DNA from: Thermopolyspora flexuosa
GTDB taxonomy: Bacteria > Actinomycetota > Actinomycetes > Streptosporangiales > Streptosporangiaceae
Length of the DNA stretch: 64,000 bases
Direction: 5' to 3'
NCBI RefSeq assembly: GCF_006716785.1
Contig: NZ_VFPQ01000001.1
Span: 3,100,001 to 3,164,000, forward strand
Shown here: piece by piece, positions 1-5,374 of the stretch
Layout of the letters: every line of letters starts with the position of its first letter
Position numbering within the stretch: position 1 is the stretch's first letter
The notes under the pieces: model-generated
Database searches by the model: none
The model's input: the letters and a program-made list of their open reading frames with translations, nothing else
Told to the model about the DNA's origin: nothing
Program-made: the position numbers and the translations under genes

Positions 1-1869
1 CGGCTCGACGAGGAGTTCCGTGCGATCTTCGGAAGCGTATCCCCAGAGTCGGACGCCGAGGTCAGGGCAATCCTTTCCGAGCTGCGCCTGCTGTCAGAAC
101 AGTACATCGCCAACCTGGCCAAGTCCTGGATGGCCCCGGCCTTCTCCGACCGGCGTCACCGCACGGCCCGTGGTCACCGTACCGACCGCTGGCTCGTGCC
201 GCGCCGCCACGATGCCTGGCTCACCGCACGGTTGCTCGGCCTGCCCGAGAAGTCCGAGGAGGGGCGGGACGTCGAGCGGGACGAGGTCGAAGCTCTACAT
301 GTGCTTTTCGACGCTCCGGACGCGCGGGAGGTAGCCCCGCTGCCGCTCGCGAATCTCACCACCGAGCAGGCGGAGGGGACACGTAAGCAGATCACCCGGG
401 TGTTGCGTGAGATCTCCGGGGGATGCCGGAACGCAACGCTTCCCGTGTACAAGCAGGAGCTGAACGAACTCCTCTCACAGGTCGTCCCCGACGATACCGT
501 CCGCGGTCTCGTGGTGGATCGCCTGATCCGCCGTGCCCACCTGGAGCCGCTCCGCCGCAAGCTGTCCGAGCTCTTCTACCACACGCCACACCTGGGCGCG
601 ATGGGCGCCGATGCCGCTGAGACGATCGCCGACGCGCTGGGCGGTTTCAAGCGATGGGAGGCGATGCCCGCCAGCCCGCTCGGCCGTCTGTTCTTCGCTT
701 TCAAGGAGCGTTTCGACGCGGAGAAGCCGTCCGAAGCGGCGCTGTCGGTGGCCGCATTCGGTGGCGATCCGCACGGATATGTCCGATACCTCGGCGAGCT
801 GACCGCGCGCGGCCACGCAGGTGTGCCCCGTTCCGTGCTCGGGCTCTCGGCCACAAGCCACTTCCCCCGTGCCCCGCACCATCACGTGTTCGGCGAGCCG
901 ACCTGGATCGTTCCGGACACCGACGACCGGGGCGTCACGATCCACGATGCCCGCGTCTTCGCCGACGACGCCGCGATCCGGATCTCCGGGGTTCAGGGTC
1001 GGCAGCGGGAGCTGAAGCTCTTCGACCTTGGCGAGCACCTGTACCGGCTCAAGCTCGCCCACCATCTAGGTGAGCTGGCCCGCCGACGTAACGAACGCGG
1101 CACACCCGGCCGGGACCGCATCCTTGTCGCCACGACCTCGTACACGAGTGTGTTACCCCTGGCCCAGGGCATGGTGCGCGGCGGTGCGGAGGAGAAACGC
1201 CTCTGCCTGCTCGCCCGGGAGGAGGAGAAGCCCGAGCTGGACCGTGGGGGCTGGCACGTACTGGCCTCGGACCAGGTGGAGCGCTTCCCCGCGACCGGAG
1301 CGGACATCCTGATCGCCCCGCTCGCCGTGGTGGAGCGCGGCGCCAATATTCTCGACGGAGAGATCTCGGCGCTCGGCGCCATCTACGTCGTGGTACGTCC
1401 GGTCCCCCTCATCGACGAACCCGCGGAGCTGCTCGCCCACATCAGCCACCGGCTGTGGCGCGAGACCTGGCAAGGGGCGACCCCGCCGAGGCGGCTCGAC
1501 GAACGCATGAAAGCCGCTGGCAAGCACTTCGACGACATCGTTCGCTCGGCCCAGTACTTCCGCTCCCTGCCCGAATGGGTCCGGCTCGGCATCGTCGCCG
1601 AGATCATCGTCAGCCTGATCCAGCTCGTCGGACGCGCTCGGCGTGGTGGAACCCCGGGCGAGCTGTACCTGGTGGACGATGCCTTTTTCGACAACCGTGG
1701 CCAGTCGGATCTGCCGCGGTTAATCCTGCAGCTGCGCGACAAGTGGGACTCCGCCGGACAGCTTGAACGACTGCGCGAACTCTACGGCCCCACACTCGAG
1801 TCCTTTTTCATCTTCGCCACGCGGATGAGCCGCGTCATGTCAGGAGACGACGACCATGATGATCACTAG
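1..1869 (+). CDS. DinG-like helicase of a pPIWI_RE island (5' end outside window)
   Basis: The reading frame is open from base 1, so the N-terminal part, including Walker A and the DEAD/DEAH box, lies upstream of the window; 622 residues are visible. They contain a motif III-like LSATS (bases about 841-855), a C-terminal RecA-like lobe beginning near RILVATTSYTS, and a motif VI-like QLVGRARRGG. I call it a DinG-type superfamily 2 helicase because the next gene is a pPIWI_RE protein, which typically sits beside such a helicase. In that family the helicase is thought to unwind nucleic-acid duplexes for the PIWI protein (literature prediction). The stop overlaps the next start by 14 nt, so the two are co-translated. 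A rare TTA leucine codon lies at 1720-1722. GC is lower than in neighbouring genes, which fits horizontal transfer. Confidence 0.8.
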   Translation, partial: RLDEEFRAIFGSVSPESDAEVRAILSELRLLSEQYIANLAKSWMAPAFSDRRHRTARGHRTDRWLVPRRHDAWLTARLLGLPEKSEEGRDVERDEVEALHVLFDAPDAREVAPLPLANLTTEQAEGTRKQITRVLREISGGCRNATLPVYKQELNELLSQVVPDDTVRGLVVDRLIRRAHLEPLRRKLSELFYHTPHLGAMGADAAETIADALGGFKRWEAMPASPLGRLFFAFKERFDAEKPSEAALSVAAFGGDPHGYVRYLGELTARGHAGVPRSVLGLSATSHFPRAPHHHVFGEPTWIVPDTDDRGVTIHDARVFADDAAIRISGVQGRQRELKLFDLGEHLYRLKLAHHLGELARRRNERGTPGRDRILVATTSYTSVLPLAQGMVRGGAEEKRLCLLAREEEKPELDRGGWHVLASDQVERFPATGADILIAPLAVVERGANILDGEISALGAIYVVVRPVPLIDEPAELLAHISHRLWRETWQGATPPRRLDERMKAAGKHFDDIVRSAQYFRSLPEWVRLGIVAEIIVSLIQLVGRARRGGTPGELYLVDDAFFDNRGQSDLPRLILQLRDKWDSAGQLERLRELYGPTLESFFIFATRMSRVMSGDDDHDDH

Positions 1870-4282
1870 CGCGTTCCGTATTCCCCAGGACCTATACGGC
1901 ACGGTCTCCGTCTATCCGCTCACGACGCAGATCATGACCGCCTTCGATCGGATCGCCGCGAAGTGGCGAGGACGCACCGGCAACGAGCACGCCACAGCAC
2001 CGTACGCCTCGCTTGCGAACGCGCTTACCGCTGTCACAGCGCAACCCGTCATCATCCTTCCGAGACCGCGGAAGCGCACCGACCCGTACTGGCTCATCAC
2101 CACCGACCCCATTGATCCCGAGACGCTCCACATGGCCACCCGGAGCTGGGAACGGCTCGCCGGCGGCCATGACACTCTGGGGCCCCTGATCGCCGAGCTC
2201 CGGCCGCGCACGATGAAGCTTGCCGACGACGTACAGCGTTCCGCCGGGCGCGTCTCGGCCGCCAACTGGGTCTACAAGGTAATGGCCTGGAACCTGGCCG
2301 CGACCTTCGCGAGCAGCCCCGTTGACTTCGACGGGCACCTGGTGACCTTCCGGCTCGACACCAAGGGAAACATGATCGCCTGGGATGACCCCATCCGCGA
2401 CACCAGCCGCGATAGGGCCGCCGAAGGACTCATCAAGATCTCTTTCGAGATCGTCACGATCCCCGGGGAAAGTGAACTGGTGGCCATCCCCACCATCAGT
2501 TTCACCCGGCTGGTTAGCAACCTGCGCATGGTGAAGTGGGCGTGGATCGACCATGGGCGCCCCACGCTGCTACGTCTCCCGATTGCGCGGAAGGCCACGG
2601 ACACCGGCTGGAGAAGTGTCTTCGCCGATTTCAGCGGCACCGTGGTCGAGGAGTGTGGGCTCTCTCCCCTGCCGTGGGGCGAGAACGTCCTGGTCGACGA
2701 GCCCGACCGGGTACGAGCCTCGCGAAGCGTCAACTGGAGCCACCGGTTGGGCGTCGGGGTCGGAGCCCGGTCCTATCGACGGTTCCTCGAACACGTGACC
2801 GCCATTTCGGGCGCCGAGCCGATCGCGTACGACGAGACGAAGATCAGGGTCCAAAGAGAGGTCGACACCGAACCCCTGTCATCGTTGGACGCCTCCGCAC
2901 TGGCGGCCGGATACGACCGGATCCGGATCGTCCACCTCTCCGCTTCCTCCGCGAGCCGGGAGCGGGTACGGCTGGCGCTGCGCGCGTACCAGGCGGTGGA
3001 GGCTCCCGAGCTACCCGTAGCGACCGGTGTCGAGCATCCGGTCACCGATCGCGTCGGCTTCGTCGCCTACGACCTACCCGAGCTTCTTGCCCATGGTGAC
3101 GTCGACCGCACGGCACTGCCTGTGGCCGCTCCCCTGCTCAAGGCCGACCCGTGTGCCCTCGTCCTCGCCATCGTAGACACCGAGTACAAGCCGGGGGATT
3201 CCATTACCGGCGACGCCAAGCCCGTACTACGCAGGATGCTGGCCCAACTCGGCGTGCCCAGCCAGTTCCTGAAGATTACGCCGGGCACTGACGGGCCGAC
3301 CGACCCGGAGACGGAGGACTATCCCGCCAATGTCGCCGTGCGAGACCTCCTACGCGCAGCCGGCCTGACCGACGACCGACTGGCCCGGGCCGTGCGGATG
3401 TCCCCGTACCCGCTGGAGCGCGAGGTGTGGCTGGTCGGCCTACACGTACGTGTGCAGAACACCAAAGCAAACGGCCGCGCCAGGCACGATCGCCCGCTCC
3501 TGGTCACGACTCTGGTGGGGGTGCGCGCCCGCCCGTCCGGGCCCTGGGAGTTGTGCATGTACGTCCGGGGCCGCGGCTGGGTACCGCATGCCGAAGGCCT
3601 CACCGCCTTTCACCGCGACTCCATCGGTGATCGGATCGAGGAGCGGAAGGCGGCCTACGCCCGGCTGCGCGCCTACGTCGATAGCGCGCTCGCCGAACTC
3701 CCAGGCGATCTTCCGGTGGTGGTCATGGTCGATGCCGATGAGACCCGCCGCGTCTGGAGCGGTCTGAGCAATGGCCAGCTGCGCGAGGGAGTACTACCCG
3801 GCGACGGTCTGGCGCGGTCCGAGCGCGTCGCCGTGGTAAGGGTCGGCACGGGCGACAAGGCCGTGCCCCGCCCGATCCACTTCATCGACGGTCGTCCATC
3901 CCGTGATCCCGGCAAGCCCGGTAGCCCGCGCAAGCGCGTGTACCGGGGTGCCGACAGTTGGCTGCTCGGTTACTCCTCGCGGGTGTTCAACCAAGGCAGC
4001 AAAGGTCGGGTCGGCTCCGACTACACACGCTTCACGCTGCCCAGTGAACGGGCCAGAGAGCAGCGCGCCCCCTGGCACGCGTTCACCGCGACCGAGTTCG
4101 TTGTCGTGCGACCGGGGCCGTTCACCGACGAGGAGGTTGTGGCGCTCTCGGCGCGGTTGTGTGCCCAGCCGCTGTCGTGGGATGCCCACACACGGCGTCC
4201 CCTGCCGTTGCACCTCGCCGTAACCGCCGACCAGGACCACCCCGCCTACCGGAGCGAGGACCTCGACGGCGACGAGGAGTGA
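1856..4282 (+). CDS. pPIWI_RE family protein (prokaryotic PIWI/Argonaute relative)
   Basis: An 808-residue protein. The C-terminal third looks like the RNase H-fold domain of pPIWI_RE proteins: a hydrophobic strand ending in MVDADETRR (Asp626, Asp628), a long loop with YRGADSWLLGYSSR, then WHAFTATEF (Glu747), and a tail with the family-like phrase RRPLPLHLA. The N-terminal and middle parts would be the X (DUF3962) and MID domains by architecture; I recognise these less surely. Known of the family: predicted nucleic-acid-guided defence against invading DNA, acting with a DinG-like helicase and often a third nuclease-type gene. Here the helicase gene lies directly upstream and overlaps. The start ATG at 1856 has AGGAGA 8-9 nt upstream. 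No third gene follows; one could lie left of the window. Whether the nuclease site is active cannot be told by eye. Confidence 0.82.
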   Translation: MMITSAFRIPQDLYGTVSVYPLTTQIMTAFDRIAAKWRGRTGNEHATAPYASLANALTAVTAQPVIILPRPRKRTDPYWLITTDPIDPETLHMATRSWERLAGGHDTLGPLIAELRPRTMKLADDVQRSAGRVSAANWVYKVMAWNLAATFASSPVDFDGHLVTFRLDTKGNMIAWDDPIRDTSRDRAAEGLIKISFEIVTIPGESELVAIPTISFTRLVSNLRMVKWAWIDHGRPTLLRLPIARKATDTGWRSVFADFSGTVVEECGLSPLPWGENVLVDEPDRVRASRSVNWSHRLGVGVGARSYRRFLEHVTAISGAEPIAYDETKIRVQREVDTEPLSSLDASALAAGYDRIRIVHLSASSASRERVRLALRAYQAVEAPELPVATGVEHPVTDRVGFVAYDLPELLAHGDVDRTALPVAAPLLKADPCALVLAIVDTEYKPGDSITGDAKPVLRRMLAQLGVPSQFLKITPGTDGPTDPETEDYPANVAVRDLLRAAGLTDDRLARAVRMSPYPLEREVWLVGLHVRVQNTKANGRARHDRPLLVTTLVGVRARPSGPWELCMYVRGRGWVPHAEGLTAFHRDSIGDRIEERKAAYARLRAYVDSALAELPGDLPVVVMVDADETRRVWSGLSNGQLREGVLPGDGLARSERVAVVRVGTGDKAVPRPIHFIDGRPSRDPGKPGSPRKRVYRGADSWLLGYSSRVFNQGSKGRVGSDYTRFTLPSERAREQRAPWHAFTATEFVVVRPGPFTDEEVVALSARLCAQPLSWDAHTRRPLPLHLAVTADQDHPAYRSEDLDGDEE

Positions 4283-4300
4283 TCCCAGCCTCACGCCGGT

Positions 4301-5374
4301 CTAGTGATACACGAGGGGCGCGGCCTTGAGGCCGAGGTGGAGGAGGAGGCGTTGCTCGCCGTCGGCGAGGTCGAGGCCGGTGAGGTGCTCGGCGCGGCCG
4401 AGGCGGTAGTAGAGGGTCTGGCGGTGGACGCCGAGGGCCTCGGCGGTCTCGCCGGCGTGGCCGCCGTGGTCGAGGTAGGTCTCGACGGTGCGGGCGAGCT
4501 CGCCGGACAGGCCGAGGGCGGGGGCGGCGAGCTCGAGCAGGTCGGTGCGGGGCAGGCGGGACAGGACGCGGTAGACGCCGAGGTCGGGCCAGGACGCGAC
4601 CGGGCCGTGGCGGTCCACGGCCTCGGCGACGCGCAGGGCGTGCAGGGCCTCGCGCCAGCTCTGCCAGGCGTCGGCGATGTCGTCGCGGGGGCCGCCGATG
4701 CCGGCGGCCGTGCCGTACATGGCCTGGACCTTGCGGGCGACGTCGCGGGCCTGGGTGGCGGGGGCGAGCAGCGCGGTGAGCGGGTCGCCGGGGTCGGCGA
4801 GCACGCCGCGGGGCAGCGACCACAGCGAGGCCACCGCGTCCGGGGACGCGCGTACCGCGATCGCGCAGACCGGGGCCGGCACGTCCACCTCGAGGCCGGC
4901 CTCGGCGCGGACGTCGGGGTCGACGGAGAACAGGGCGCGCAGCGCGGCGCCCGCCTTCTGGCGGCTGCGGACCTCCTGGGCGAGGGCGGCCGCGGCCCGG
5001 CGGACGAGGGGCGCGGCGGCCGCGAGGCGGTCGTCGGTGATCGCGCCGGAGTCGAGCAGCCACAGGTAGCCGTAGGTGACGCCGCGGTACCGGAGCGGCA
5101 CGCAGATCCGGGCGAGCACGCCGAGGCGCTGGTCGGCCGGGATGCGTACCGGCGCGGTCGCGGTGGCGATGCCGAAGCCCTCGAAGTAGGCGCGCACCCG
5201 GTCGCTGGCGCGGCGGCGCAGGATCGACTCCTCGCGCACCCGGTCGATGGCGCCGCTCTGCGCGCAGTAGGCGACGAGCCGGAAGGCCCGGTCCTCGATC
5301 GTCGCCGCGCCGCCGAGGACCTCCGCGATCTCGTCGACGATGCTCTGAAGGTCCACCCCGCCATTGTCCGTCAT
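4301..5374 (-). CDS. PucR-family transcriptional regulator, probably of proline catabolism
   Basis: A 357-residue protein with the PucR/CdaR layout: an N-terminal sensor-like region, a middle degenerate GGDEF-like region, and a C-terminal PucR-type helix-turn-helix around residues 300-345 (AEALGVHRQTLYYRLGRAE). It is transcribed divergently from proline dehydrogenase, so control of proline use is the obvious inference; PucR-type regulators are known to govern such catabolic genes. I chose the ATG at 5374 rather than upstream starts at 5392 or 5437. A perfect inverted repeat at 5389-5404 then falls in the promoter instead of the coding sequence. It converges with the pPIWI_RE gene with only 18 nt between stops and no obvious terminator. 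Confidence 0.85.
   Translation of the reverse strand: MTDNGGVDLQSIVDEIAEVLGGAATIEDRAFRLVAYCAQSGAIDRVREESILRRRASDRVRAYFEGFGIATATAPVRIPADQRLGVLARICVPLRYRGVTYGYLWLLDSGAITDDRLAAAAPLVRRAAAALAQEVRSRQKAGAALRALFSVDPDVRAEAGLEVDVPAPVCAIAVRASPDAVASLWSLPRGVLADPGDPLTALLAPATQARDVARKVQAMYGTAAGIGGPRDDIADAWQSWREALHALRVAEAVDRHGPVASWPDLGVYRVLSRLPRTDLLELAAPALGLSGELARTVETYLDHGGHAGETAEALGVHRQTLYYRLGRAEHLTGLDLADGEQRLLLHLGLKAAPLVYH

What the first reader, a model, noticed from the sequence alone, without database searches (positions are those of the whole stretch)
1..4282. Helicase plus pPIWI_RE defence unit at the window edge
A prokaryotic PIWI-related protein of the RE type is encoded directly behind a DinG-like helicase with a 14-nt overlap. 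Seen: SAT motif, QLVGRARRGG, and the pPIWI_RE-like C-terminus. Known: this family is predicted to be guided defence against foreign DNA and is far less studied than Argonaute. Its GC looks about 62-67% by eye in sampled lines, against about 70-80% in nearby genes, and it sits on the border of housekeeping genes, so it is probably horizontally acquired. The third gene of the island is not in view.
Basis: partly seen in the sequence, partly recalled or inferred. Interest (0 to 1): 0.85.

Follow-up and report, generated by a model that had tools for sequence, protein, structure and literature searches.

The report
Four-gene PIWI-like DNA defence island
At the window's edge lies the end of a four-gene bacterial island that probably guards against foreign DNA: an Argonaute-like protein that seems to have lost its own cutting site, encoded with a helicase and two separate DNA-cutting enzymes, one of which resembles nucleases that work with Argonautes elsewhere.

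Summary
The 808-aa protein is a pPIWI-RE (RNaseH_pPIWI_RE 3e-50, X 4e-31, MID 3e-8). The partial helicase before it is the 3' part of a 1058-aa PprDinG (5.9e-121), overlapping it by 14 nt. The genome extends upstream, so the 'third gene out of view' could be read: a 359-aa Y/zinc-ribbon/REase gene, and before it a fourth, a 568-aa PD-(D/E)XK nuclease (PprPDDEXK 6e-80). All four are co-directional and fill 8.6 kb that is missing between the same flanking genes in a same-genus draft genome.

New here: (1) at the assigned position of the first catalytic Asp of the PIWI RNase H site, Asp is absent in 110 of 110 actinobacterial pPIWI-REs, while guide-pocket Lys/Gln (108 and 110) and the REase D...DxK (105) persist; the cutter is probably the partner nuclease. 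(2) The fourth protein is AdnA/Cas4-like with eight invariant Cys (53 of 53), shares the fold of the Argonaute-associated nuclease ACE1, and keeps company with the trio in three groups of the helicase tree.

The family is described and PADLOC-DB already models the fourth protein: a new member of a known kind. Guide-making by that nuclease is testable, unproven.

The parts
1..4302 (+). Part of the island inside the window. The whole island is 8.6 kb, C1:3095708-3104302; its first two genes lie outside the window: gene 1, PD-(D/E)XK nuclease, C1:3095896-3097602, and gene 2, Y/zinc-ribbon/REase, C1:3097617-3098696 (window base 1 = C1:3100001)
   Evidence: Stretch absent between lpd and pucR in same-genus draft G057: alignment ends at L003 7707 and resumes at L003 16303, with 43 unaligned nt in G057; genes 1 and 2:
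1..1869 (+). Gene 3, DinG-type SF2 helicase, the C-terminal 622 of 1058 aa (whole gene C1:3098693-3101869; overlaps gene 2 by 4 nt)
   Evidence: PADLOC PprDinG 5.9e-121 for the whole protein, 3.1e-74 for this piece; Walker A K224, DEVD 407-410, four Cys 307/329/344/350, Q977..GRxxR
1856..4282 (+). Gene 4, pPIWI-RE protein, 808 aa; overlaps gene 3 by 14 nt
   Evidence: AlphaFold model pLDDT 91.2, pTM 0.91
1871..2875 (+). pPIWI_RE_X (N-terminal) domain, residues 6-340
3140..3379 (+). MID_pPIWI_RE domain, residues 429-508; guide-pocket K455 and Q470
   Evidence: K 108/110, Q 110/110; their role in guide binding is inferred from Argonaute MID domains
3431..4243 (+). RNaseH_pPIWI_RE domain, residues 526-796; H530 where the first catalytic Asp is expected, D626 on strand 4
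4283..4302 (.). Right edge of the island, between the pPIWI-RE stop and the pucR stop (pucR is on the minus strand, 4301-5374)

Best explanation
It is a four-gene pPIWI-RE island (PD-(D/E)XK nuclease, Y/zinc-ribbon/REase, DinG-type helicase with an iron-sulphur-type Cys set, pPIWI-RE), probably transcribed as one unit and most likely acting against invading DNA. Shown: gene order, overlaps, family membership, island boundaries, and conservation of the helicase, REase and nuclease motifs. Inferred: the pPIWI-RE protein binds a short guide strand in its MID pocket and recognises matching nucleic acid but does not cut, because the first catalytic Asp of its RNase H site is replaced (H530). The DinG-type helicase opens or moves the hybrid, and the REase (D282, D298-x-K300) makes the cut. 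The first gene's AdnA/Cas4-like nuclease either trims DNA into guides or resects the cut ends.
For: Profiles. Spacing: 14 nt between genes 1 and 2, 4-nt overlap, 14-nt overlap. One 8.6-kb insertion holding these four called genes and no other, relative to a same-genus draft. Conservation: in 110 pPIWI-RE proteins Asp at the assigned first catalytic position 0, MID K 108, MID Q 110; in 110 REase proteins D 105, D and K of DxK 105 each, zinc Cys 109-110. DinG Walker A Lys, DEVD, four Cys and motif VI in 38-39 of 39. Fourth gene: D418 52/53, E431 49/53, K433 49/53, eight Cys 53/53. The four-gene state needs only 3 changes on a FastTree of 110 DinG proteins, shuffled mean 29, 0 of 500 shuffles as low, and PDDEXK and DinG tree distances agree (r 0.73 over 33 loci, 0 of 2000 permutations as high; 0.97 in the six-member clade of this island). 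The pPIWI-RE model matches TtAgo over its length, Z 18.6, 510 residues at 5.1 A. A tested family member, PsPIWI-RE, uses RNA to guide DNA cleavage and DNA to guide RNA cleavage, and its two catalytic Asp are essential (PMC10991935, abstract and sections 3 and 11 read).
Against: No phage, plasmid or guide data exist for this island. The only knockout I read about (P. stutzeri) gave ciprofloxacin sensitivity and filaments; no phage test is described in the sections read. The D1 position was assigned from predicted strand 1 (524-534), a recalled Argonaute hGhDh pattern and spacing to the published D525/D610, without a residue-level superposition, and one search used a quick automatic alignment. 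Asp on strand 4 is kept in 73/110, which a fully dead site would not require. No pPIWI-RE was found in 50,697 phage records. The DinG tree carries long-branch warnings, and 3 changes cannot tell gains from losses. The empty-site genome is a 78% complete draft.
Confidence: 0.6

Rival explanations
1. The first gene's nuclease is the guide maker: an AdnA/Cas4-like enzyme that chews foreign or broken DNA into short pieces which load the nuclease-dead pPIWI-RE, so each four-gene island carries its own guide supply.
For: Placed first, upstream of the trio, in each of the 19 four-gene stretches (besides this genome's) and the 16. The model of the S. carneum ortholog (62% identical to this genome's protein) matches ACE1, the Argonaute-associated Cas4 family protein, Z 14.1 over 228 residues, tied with AdnA Z 15.0. 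Inactive pAgos are known to sit in operons with Cas4 and other nucleases (PMC6299218, passages), and a Cas4-like gene was found, with ago, to reduce RSF1010 plasmid transfer or maintenance (PMC10653904, passages). A review passage proposes guide generation for PIWI-RE-linked nucleases in general (PMC10573157, passages).
Against: 76 of 110 islands in the tree lack the gene, so it is not needed for the basic function; the matched fold is shared by many repair nucleases; nothing shows it acting on guides.
Confidence: 0.3
2. The first gene's nuclease is a downstream effector: like AdnA it resects or degrades DNA from ends made by the REase, enhancing destruction of the target.
For: AdnA's nuclease domain is among the two tied best fold matches (Z 15.0) and has the higher identity (24%); catalytic D418 and E431xK433 in 33 of 33 four-gene copies.
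Against: No fused motor; the nuclease also stands without a trio in the 20 loci fetched for that reason, so its job is not strictly tied to REase cuts.
Confidence: 0.35
3. The PD-(D/E)XK gene is an independent neighbour (stand-alone Cas4-like repair or defence gene) and the functional unit is the classical three-gene island.
For: Relatives at 50-62% identity occur without the trio in genomes of the same family (16 of the 20 such loci fetched); in this genome its GC3 is host-like (0.960) while the trio's is low (0.82-0.84); on the nuclease tree it pairs with a stand-alone copy.
Against: All four genes are missing together in G057; 14 nt separate it from gene 2; the four-gene state clusters on the helicase tree with congruent distances; one stand-alone copy (L096) still has a 71-aa gene-2 stump beside it, which points to loss of the trio there.
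Confidence: 0.2
4. The island serves the cell's own replication or R-loop handling rather than defence.
For: The P. stutzeri knockout is ciprofloxacin-sensitive and filaments; DinG helicases unwind R-loops (as stated in PMC3702460, section 6).
Against: Patchy: 37 of 200 genomes of the same family, this one included, and 5 of 296 across the phylum, this one included; also on 17 Streptomyces plasmid records, 6 of them with at least 80% of the protein; some relatives are flanked by other conflict genes (SEFIR and caspase-helicase at L064, N6-methylase at L043).
Confidence: 0.15

Closest known systems
pPIWI-RE three-gene island (Burroughs, Iyer and Aravind 2013, PMC3702460; abstract and section 6 read)
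   Same: REase first, then DinG helicase, then pPIWI-RE, with overlapping ends; Y + zinc ribbon + REase architecture; cysteine-rich DinG; inactive RNase H in part of the family
   Different: A fourth gene, the PD-(D/E)XK nuclease, stands in front; it is not mentioned in the parts read. No Pfam pPIWI_RE_Z hit on the helicase at E <= 1
PADLOC-DB Ppr models (PprPDDEXK, PprRE, PprDinG, PprPIWI)
   Same: Each of the four proteins hits its model
   Different: Gene 2 hits PprRE less strongly (1.6e-8) than the Y and REase domain models; the source paper behind these models was not found in the library
PsPIWI-RE of Pseudomonas stutzeri (PMC10991935)
   Same: Same protein family; the spacing of its D610 and E718 resembles that of D626 and E747 here
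   Different: PsPIWI-RE has both catalytic Asp (D525, D610) and cuts; here the first is H530
Prokaryotic Argonautes with a Cas4-family partner (ACE1, PDB 9iab/9iac; Cas4 orthogroups in PMC6299218, passages)
   Same: A guide-binding PIWI protein encoded with a Cas4-like nuclease; the nuclease folds match (Z 13.6-14.1)
   Different: No significant sequence match to ACE1 (E 0.77); the protein here is about twice as long (568 aa against 266-269) with a second Cys cluster; the partner is a pPIWI-RE, with a helicase and an REase as well
AdnA nuclease domain (AdnAB)
   Same: Fold match to the C-terminal half, Z 15.0, 24% identity; Cys...CX2CX5C of the Fe-S nuclease type
   Different: No helicase domain fused

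Membership tests
pPIWI-RE protein family | RNaseH_pPIWI_RE, MID_pPIWI_RE and pPIWI_RE_X domains above curated cut-offs | tested here: met
   172.1/25, 34.4/26.6 and 108.9/30.5 bits
pPIWI-RE protein family | Conserved Glu of the 'RE' pair | tested here: met
   E747; Glu in 101 of 110
pPIWI-RE protein family | Conserved Arg of the 'RE' pair | tested here: inconclusive
   R657 and R662 both lie at plausible spacing before E747; R662 is at least 90% conserved in A3, but the residue was not matched to the published Arg
pPIWI-RE protein family | Extra helix after the three-strand meander of the RNase H fold | tested here: met
   Strands 524-534, 548-558, 565-570 (574-577), then helices 578-587 and 597-613, then strand 621-626 in the model
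pPIWI-RE three-gene island | Order REase, DinG, pPIWI-RE with overlapping or abutting ends | tested here: met
   Overlaps of 4 and 14 nt
pPIWI-RE three-gene island | Y domain and zinc ribbon before the REase domain | tested here: met
   pPIWI_RE_Y 5.1e-13, REase 3.6e-17; three Cys in the zinc-ribbon region in 109-110 of 110
pPIWI-RE three-gene island | DinG-type helicase with iron-binding Cys region | tested here: met
   PprDinG 5.9e-121; four Cys in 38 of 39; iron binding itself not tested
pPIWI-RE three-gene island | Z domain at the N-terminus of the helicase | tested here: inconclusive
   No pPIWI_RE_Z hit at E <= 1, but PprDinG covers residues 13-1042
Catalytic (DEDX) Argonaute/PIWI nuclease | Asp on strand 1 of the RNase H domain | tested here: not met
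   H530 at the assigned column; Asp in 0 of 110; column assigned from strand position, recalled motif and spacing, without superposition
Cas4/AddB/AdnA-type PD-(D/E)XK nuclease (gene 1) | D...ExK motif and Cys...CX2CX5C | tested here: met
   D418, E431xK433, C305/C524/C527/C533; PDDEXK_1 4.6e-24
ACE1 (Argonaute-associated Cas4 family protein 1) | Sequence-level relationship | tested here: not met
   Profile search against PDB sequences: 9iab E 0.77; fold likeness Z 14.1 concerns likeness only
Anti-phage or anti-plasmid defence system | Protects cells against phage or plasmids | not testable with these tools
   No experiment available

The most novel reading that the evidence does not exclude
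The fourth gene makes this an Argonaute-like immune island with its own guide factory: a Cas4/AdnA-like nuclease built as a tandem (one live nuclease half, one inactive half that keeps its own Cys set) cuts intruder DNA into guides, which load a nuclease-dead pPIWI-RE that directs a DinG helicase and a separate REase to matching DNA. This would have arisen independently of the Argonaute/ACE1 pairing, and the survival of the nuclease without the trio (stand-alone copies, and copies next to a PIN-like protein on plasmids) would mean it is a general-purpose nucleic-acid processor reused by several systems.
Probability: 0.25. Interest if true: 0.75.

Novelty: new member of a known kind. Interest (0 to 1): 0.48.

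Why it matters
How pPIWI-RE systems get guides and which part cuts is open (the 2013 paper could only propose a model, and one member has been tested biochemically in what I read). The data here say that, in 110 actinobacterial proteins sampled, the first PIWI catalytic Asp is missing while the separate REase site is kept in nearly all, which gives a direct prediction for mutants. They also define a four-gene subtype with a Cas4/AdnA-like nuclease that its three-gene sisters lack, so the role of that nuclease can be tested by comparing natural three- and four-gene islands.

Tried and rejected
Rejected or led nowhere: single-protein scan of genome contigs (no relative confirmed); viral-contig scans with the PDDEXK and DinG alignments (none confirmed); phage records (none); Rfam on the 18-kb stretch around the island (none at gathering score). 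A CRISPR-like guide array was not searched for. Solved structures by sequence: no pPIWI-RE. 'GC alone shows transfer': not accepted, since in 116 related islands (duplicates included) DinG is on average only 0.006 below its flanks; the empty site is the stronger evidence. 'Stand-alone nucleases are all leftovers of lost trios': only 1 of 20 (L096) has a visible stump. Other tblastn hits with the L003 gene-2 query are out-of-frame overlaps with PDDEXK, because that query carried an N-terminal ORF extension; one weak hit in L094 (E 3e-4) was not followed up. Tandem origin of the nuclease: the same order of predicted helices and strands in both halves (read by eye) and matching Cys sets, but profile comparison of the halves is weak (local probability 14.8, P 0.0018; global probability 0.6, P 0.048) and Pfam sees only a 33-residue tail in one of four N-terminal halves (E 0.15); left as suggested, not shown. 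Shared direct repeat at the island ends: longest exact match 8 nt, taken as chance. Promoter scan (sigma-70 type): none found. In one search the row labelled H340 is in fact H333 (H in 16/20 and 24/33); H340 is the invariant one. The PIWI strand-4 Asp counted under the label D625 is D626.

Unexplained: in this genome gene 1 has host-like GC3 (0.960) and genes 2-4 do not (0.842, 0.831, 0.822), whereas in the five closest relatives the four genes lie within 0.04 of each other. On the PDDEXK tree this gene pairs with a stand-alone copy, L085, while its DinG pairs with the four-gene island L102.
Full report
What was given. The window is bases 3100001-3164000 of the main contig (C1) of a 5.77-Mb genome; its relatives found here are Actinomycetota. 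The missing side could be fetched.

Observation. Window 1-1869 and 1856-4282 are as described. The second protein carries the three pPIWI-RE domains and matches PADLOC PprPIWI. The full helicase is 1058 aa (C1:3098693-3101869) and matches PprDinG over residues 13-1042. Upstream are a 359-aa Y/zinc-ribbon/REase gene (C1:3097617-3098696) and a 568-aa PD-(D/E)XK nuclease (C1:3095896-3097602), which PADLOC calls PprPDDEXK. There are 14 nt between genes 1 and 2; genes 2/3 overlap by 4 nt and genes 3/4 by 14 nt, all on the + strand.

Boundaries and transfer. In G057, the one other genome of the same genus in the samples (78% complete, 590 contigs), one contig runs through the site without the island: lpd and pucR are neighbours, with 43 unaligned nt where this genome has 8.6 kb. 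pucR also appears on a second G057 contig, so that draft may mix strains. None of the seven stretches fetched around pucR from six relatives gives a tblastn hit (E <= 1e-8) to any island gene; two of those genomes, G003 and G009, have pPIWI genes elsewhere. Genes 2-4 have GC3 0.822-0.842 against 0.959 (sd 0.038) for 49 neighbouring genes, 1 of which is lower; gene 1 has 0.960. In the five closest relatives the four genes lie within 0.04 of each other in GC3, so the split in this genome stands out and is unexplained.

Distribution. PprPIWI is found in 37 of 200 sampled genomes of the same family, 5 of 296 of the phylum sample at E <= 1e-20 (this genome counted in both), 17 plasmid records, all Streptomyces, 6 with at least 80% of the protein, and no phage record. 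Of 40 stretches fetched around pPIWI genes, 19 have all four genes, one is cut by a contig end where a PDDEXK fragment was seen (L058), 17 have the trio without PDDEXK (L080 with a split and L081 with a cut pPIWI gene among them), and 3 are partial (L042, L063, L067). A DinG-based scan of named genomes confirmed 135 relatives and kept the best 80, 79 distinct loci, 7 of them the same contigs as above: 16 have four genes, 62 the trio, and 1 is cut. In the phylum sample the three genomes with PprPDDEXK all have PprPIWI; in the two besides this one the genes lie about 5 kb apart.

Is gene 1 part of it? On a FastTree of 110 helicases the four-gene state (34 rows, L058 included) needs 3 changes against a shuffled mean of 29 (long-branch warnings apply, and gains cannot be told from losses). 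This genome lies in a clade whose six members all have four genes. PDDEXK and DinG distances correlate at 0.73 over 33 loci (0 of 2000 permutations as high) and 0.97 in that clade. Against this, of the 30 PDDEXK places in the family sample without a pPIWI hit nearby I fetched 20, and none shows DinG or PIWI. Sixteen of these share the clade of this genome's copy, and only L096 keeps a gene-2 stump. So the nuclease goes with the trio as a stable subtype but also occurs without it.

Active sites. In 110 pPIWI-RE proteins, Asp is absent at the assigned strand-1 catalytic position in all 110 (His 73, Trp 24, others 13); strand-4 Asp is present in 73; MID Lys in 108, MID Gln in 110 and RE Glu in 101. 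The assignment rests on the model's strand 1 at 524-534, on the Argonaute hGhDh pattern (recalled), and on spacing to PsPIWI-RE D525, D610, R639 and E718. In 110 REase proteins, zinc Cys are kept in 109-110, E257 in 108, D282, D298 and K300 each in 105. DinG keeps Walker A Lys, DEVD, four Cys and motif VI in 38-39 of 39. In 53 nucleases eight Cys are invariant, and D418, E431 and K433 are kept in 33 of 33 four-gene copies and in 19, 16 and 16 of 20 stand-alone copies.

Structure. The pPIWI-RE model (pLDDT 91.2, pTM 0.91) matches Argonautes over residues 1-799, best row TtAgo Z 18.6, 510 residues, 5.1 A, with many other Argonautes tied or close. The N-terminal half shows the same order of helices and strands by eye and a second Cys...CX2CX5C set, but sequence comparison of the halves is weak. 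A sequence search found no solved pPIWI-RE and only a non-significant ACE1 hit (E 0.77).

How it most likely works. Shown: the parts and their conservation. Inferred: a guide-loaded but non-cutting pPIWI-RE recognises foreign nucleic acid, DinG remodels it, the REase cuts it, and the front nuclease makes guides or resects. This refines the 2013 model (PMC3702460, abstract and section 6 read), in which the REase cuts and an active PIWI may also cleave RNA. PsPIWI-RE shows that the family can use RNA guides on DNA and DNA guides on RNA (PMC10991935, abstract and sections 3 and 11 read). Inactive pAgos with Cas4 partners are documented (PMC6299218, passages), as is a Cas4-like gene that, like ago, limits RSF1010 plasmids in Synechococcus (PMC10653904, passages). 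Stand-alone Cas4 genes are common (PMC5704561, passages). A review already says that PIWI-RE-linked nucleases may make guides and helicases may give access (PMC10573157, passages). A 2025 paper on ACE nucleases with cyanobacterial Argonautes is recalled only; of it I saw just the PDB titles. PMC7641849 was looked at by passages and is not about pPIWI-RE.

Novelty. PADLOC-DB has a model for the fourth protein, so its curators knew the association. I did not find it described: the sections and passages I read do not mention it, and the papers listed by searches show none about it in title or abstract start (one search listed 20 of 202). Ten of the 13 papers with 'PIWI-RE' were not opened, and only open-licence PMC papers are held. 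Filed as a new member of a known kind, with new evidence on the subtype.

Noticed in passing
L201:10073-12459 (NZ_CP110616.1, Rhodococcus antarcticus plasmid) and L202:9992-12507 (NZ_CP108380.1, Streptomyces albidoflavus plasmid): Two distant plasmids carry a relative of the PD-(D/E)XK nuclease (29-32% identity; PprPDDEXK 6e-51 and 1.3e-51) followed by a 265-268-aa protein (29% identical to each other, sub-threshold PIN_4 hit 8.9e-4 in one) and a convergent ImmA/IrrE peptidase, with no PIWI gene annotated in the stretch: a possible second module using the same nuclease.
   Followed up: partly
L043:13342-16731 and equivalent places in other clade-A islands: Four-gene islands of the second major clade lie beside a kinase-like gene and, in several, an N6-methylase-like gene (BLAST families 4 and 5; Pfam Pkinase and N6_Mtase checked on L043 only), although the 2013 paper notes the lack of a methylase; possibly an added self-marking or signalling layer.
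   Followed up: partly
L064, L065, L066, L071 flanks: Islands of the third four-gene lineage are flanked by a caspase-domain/DEAD-helicase protein and a SEFIR-domain protein (families 12 and 13; Pfam checked on L064).
   Followed up: no
L062:6020-7246, L068:6167-7354 and seven more loci of BLAST family 9: In nine three-gene islands the slot in front of the REase gene holds a protein of one family where four-gene islands have the nuclease; the two members scanned are XRE-type HTH proteins.
   Followed up: partly
L003:7828-7845 (C1:3095828-3095845, upstream of the window) and L102:7013-7030: TTGTG-N7-TTCACA 50-64 nt before the first gene in this island and its closest relative, found in no other of the 202 fetched loci apart from the overlapping L002 copy; possible operator; the pattern was chosen by eye from these two.
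   Followed up: partly
L082-L101: Copies of the PD-(D/E)XK nuclease without the trio in the same family, 16 of 20 at 50-62% identity to this genome's and 16 of 20 with E431 and K433; context differs between most of them, so they are a conserved gene of unknown job.
   Followed up: partly
L080:10161-12949 and L104:13217-15675: pPIWI-RE genes split into two frames, possibly recent breaks or sequencing errors; not mended.
   Followed up: no
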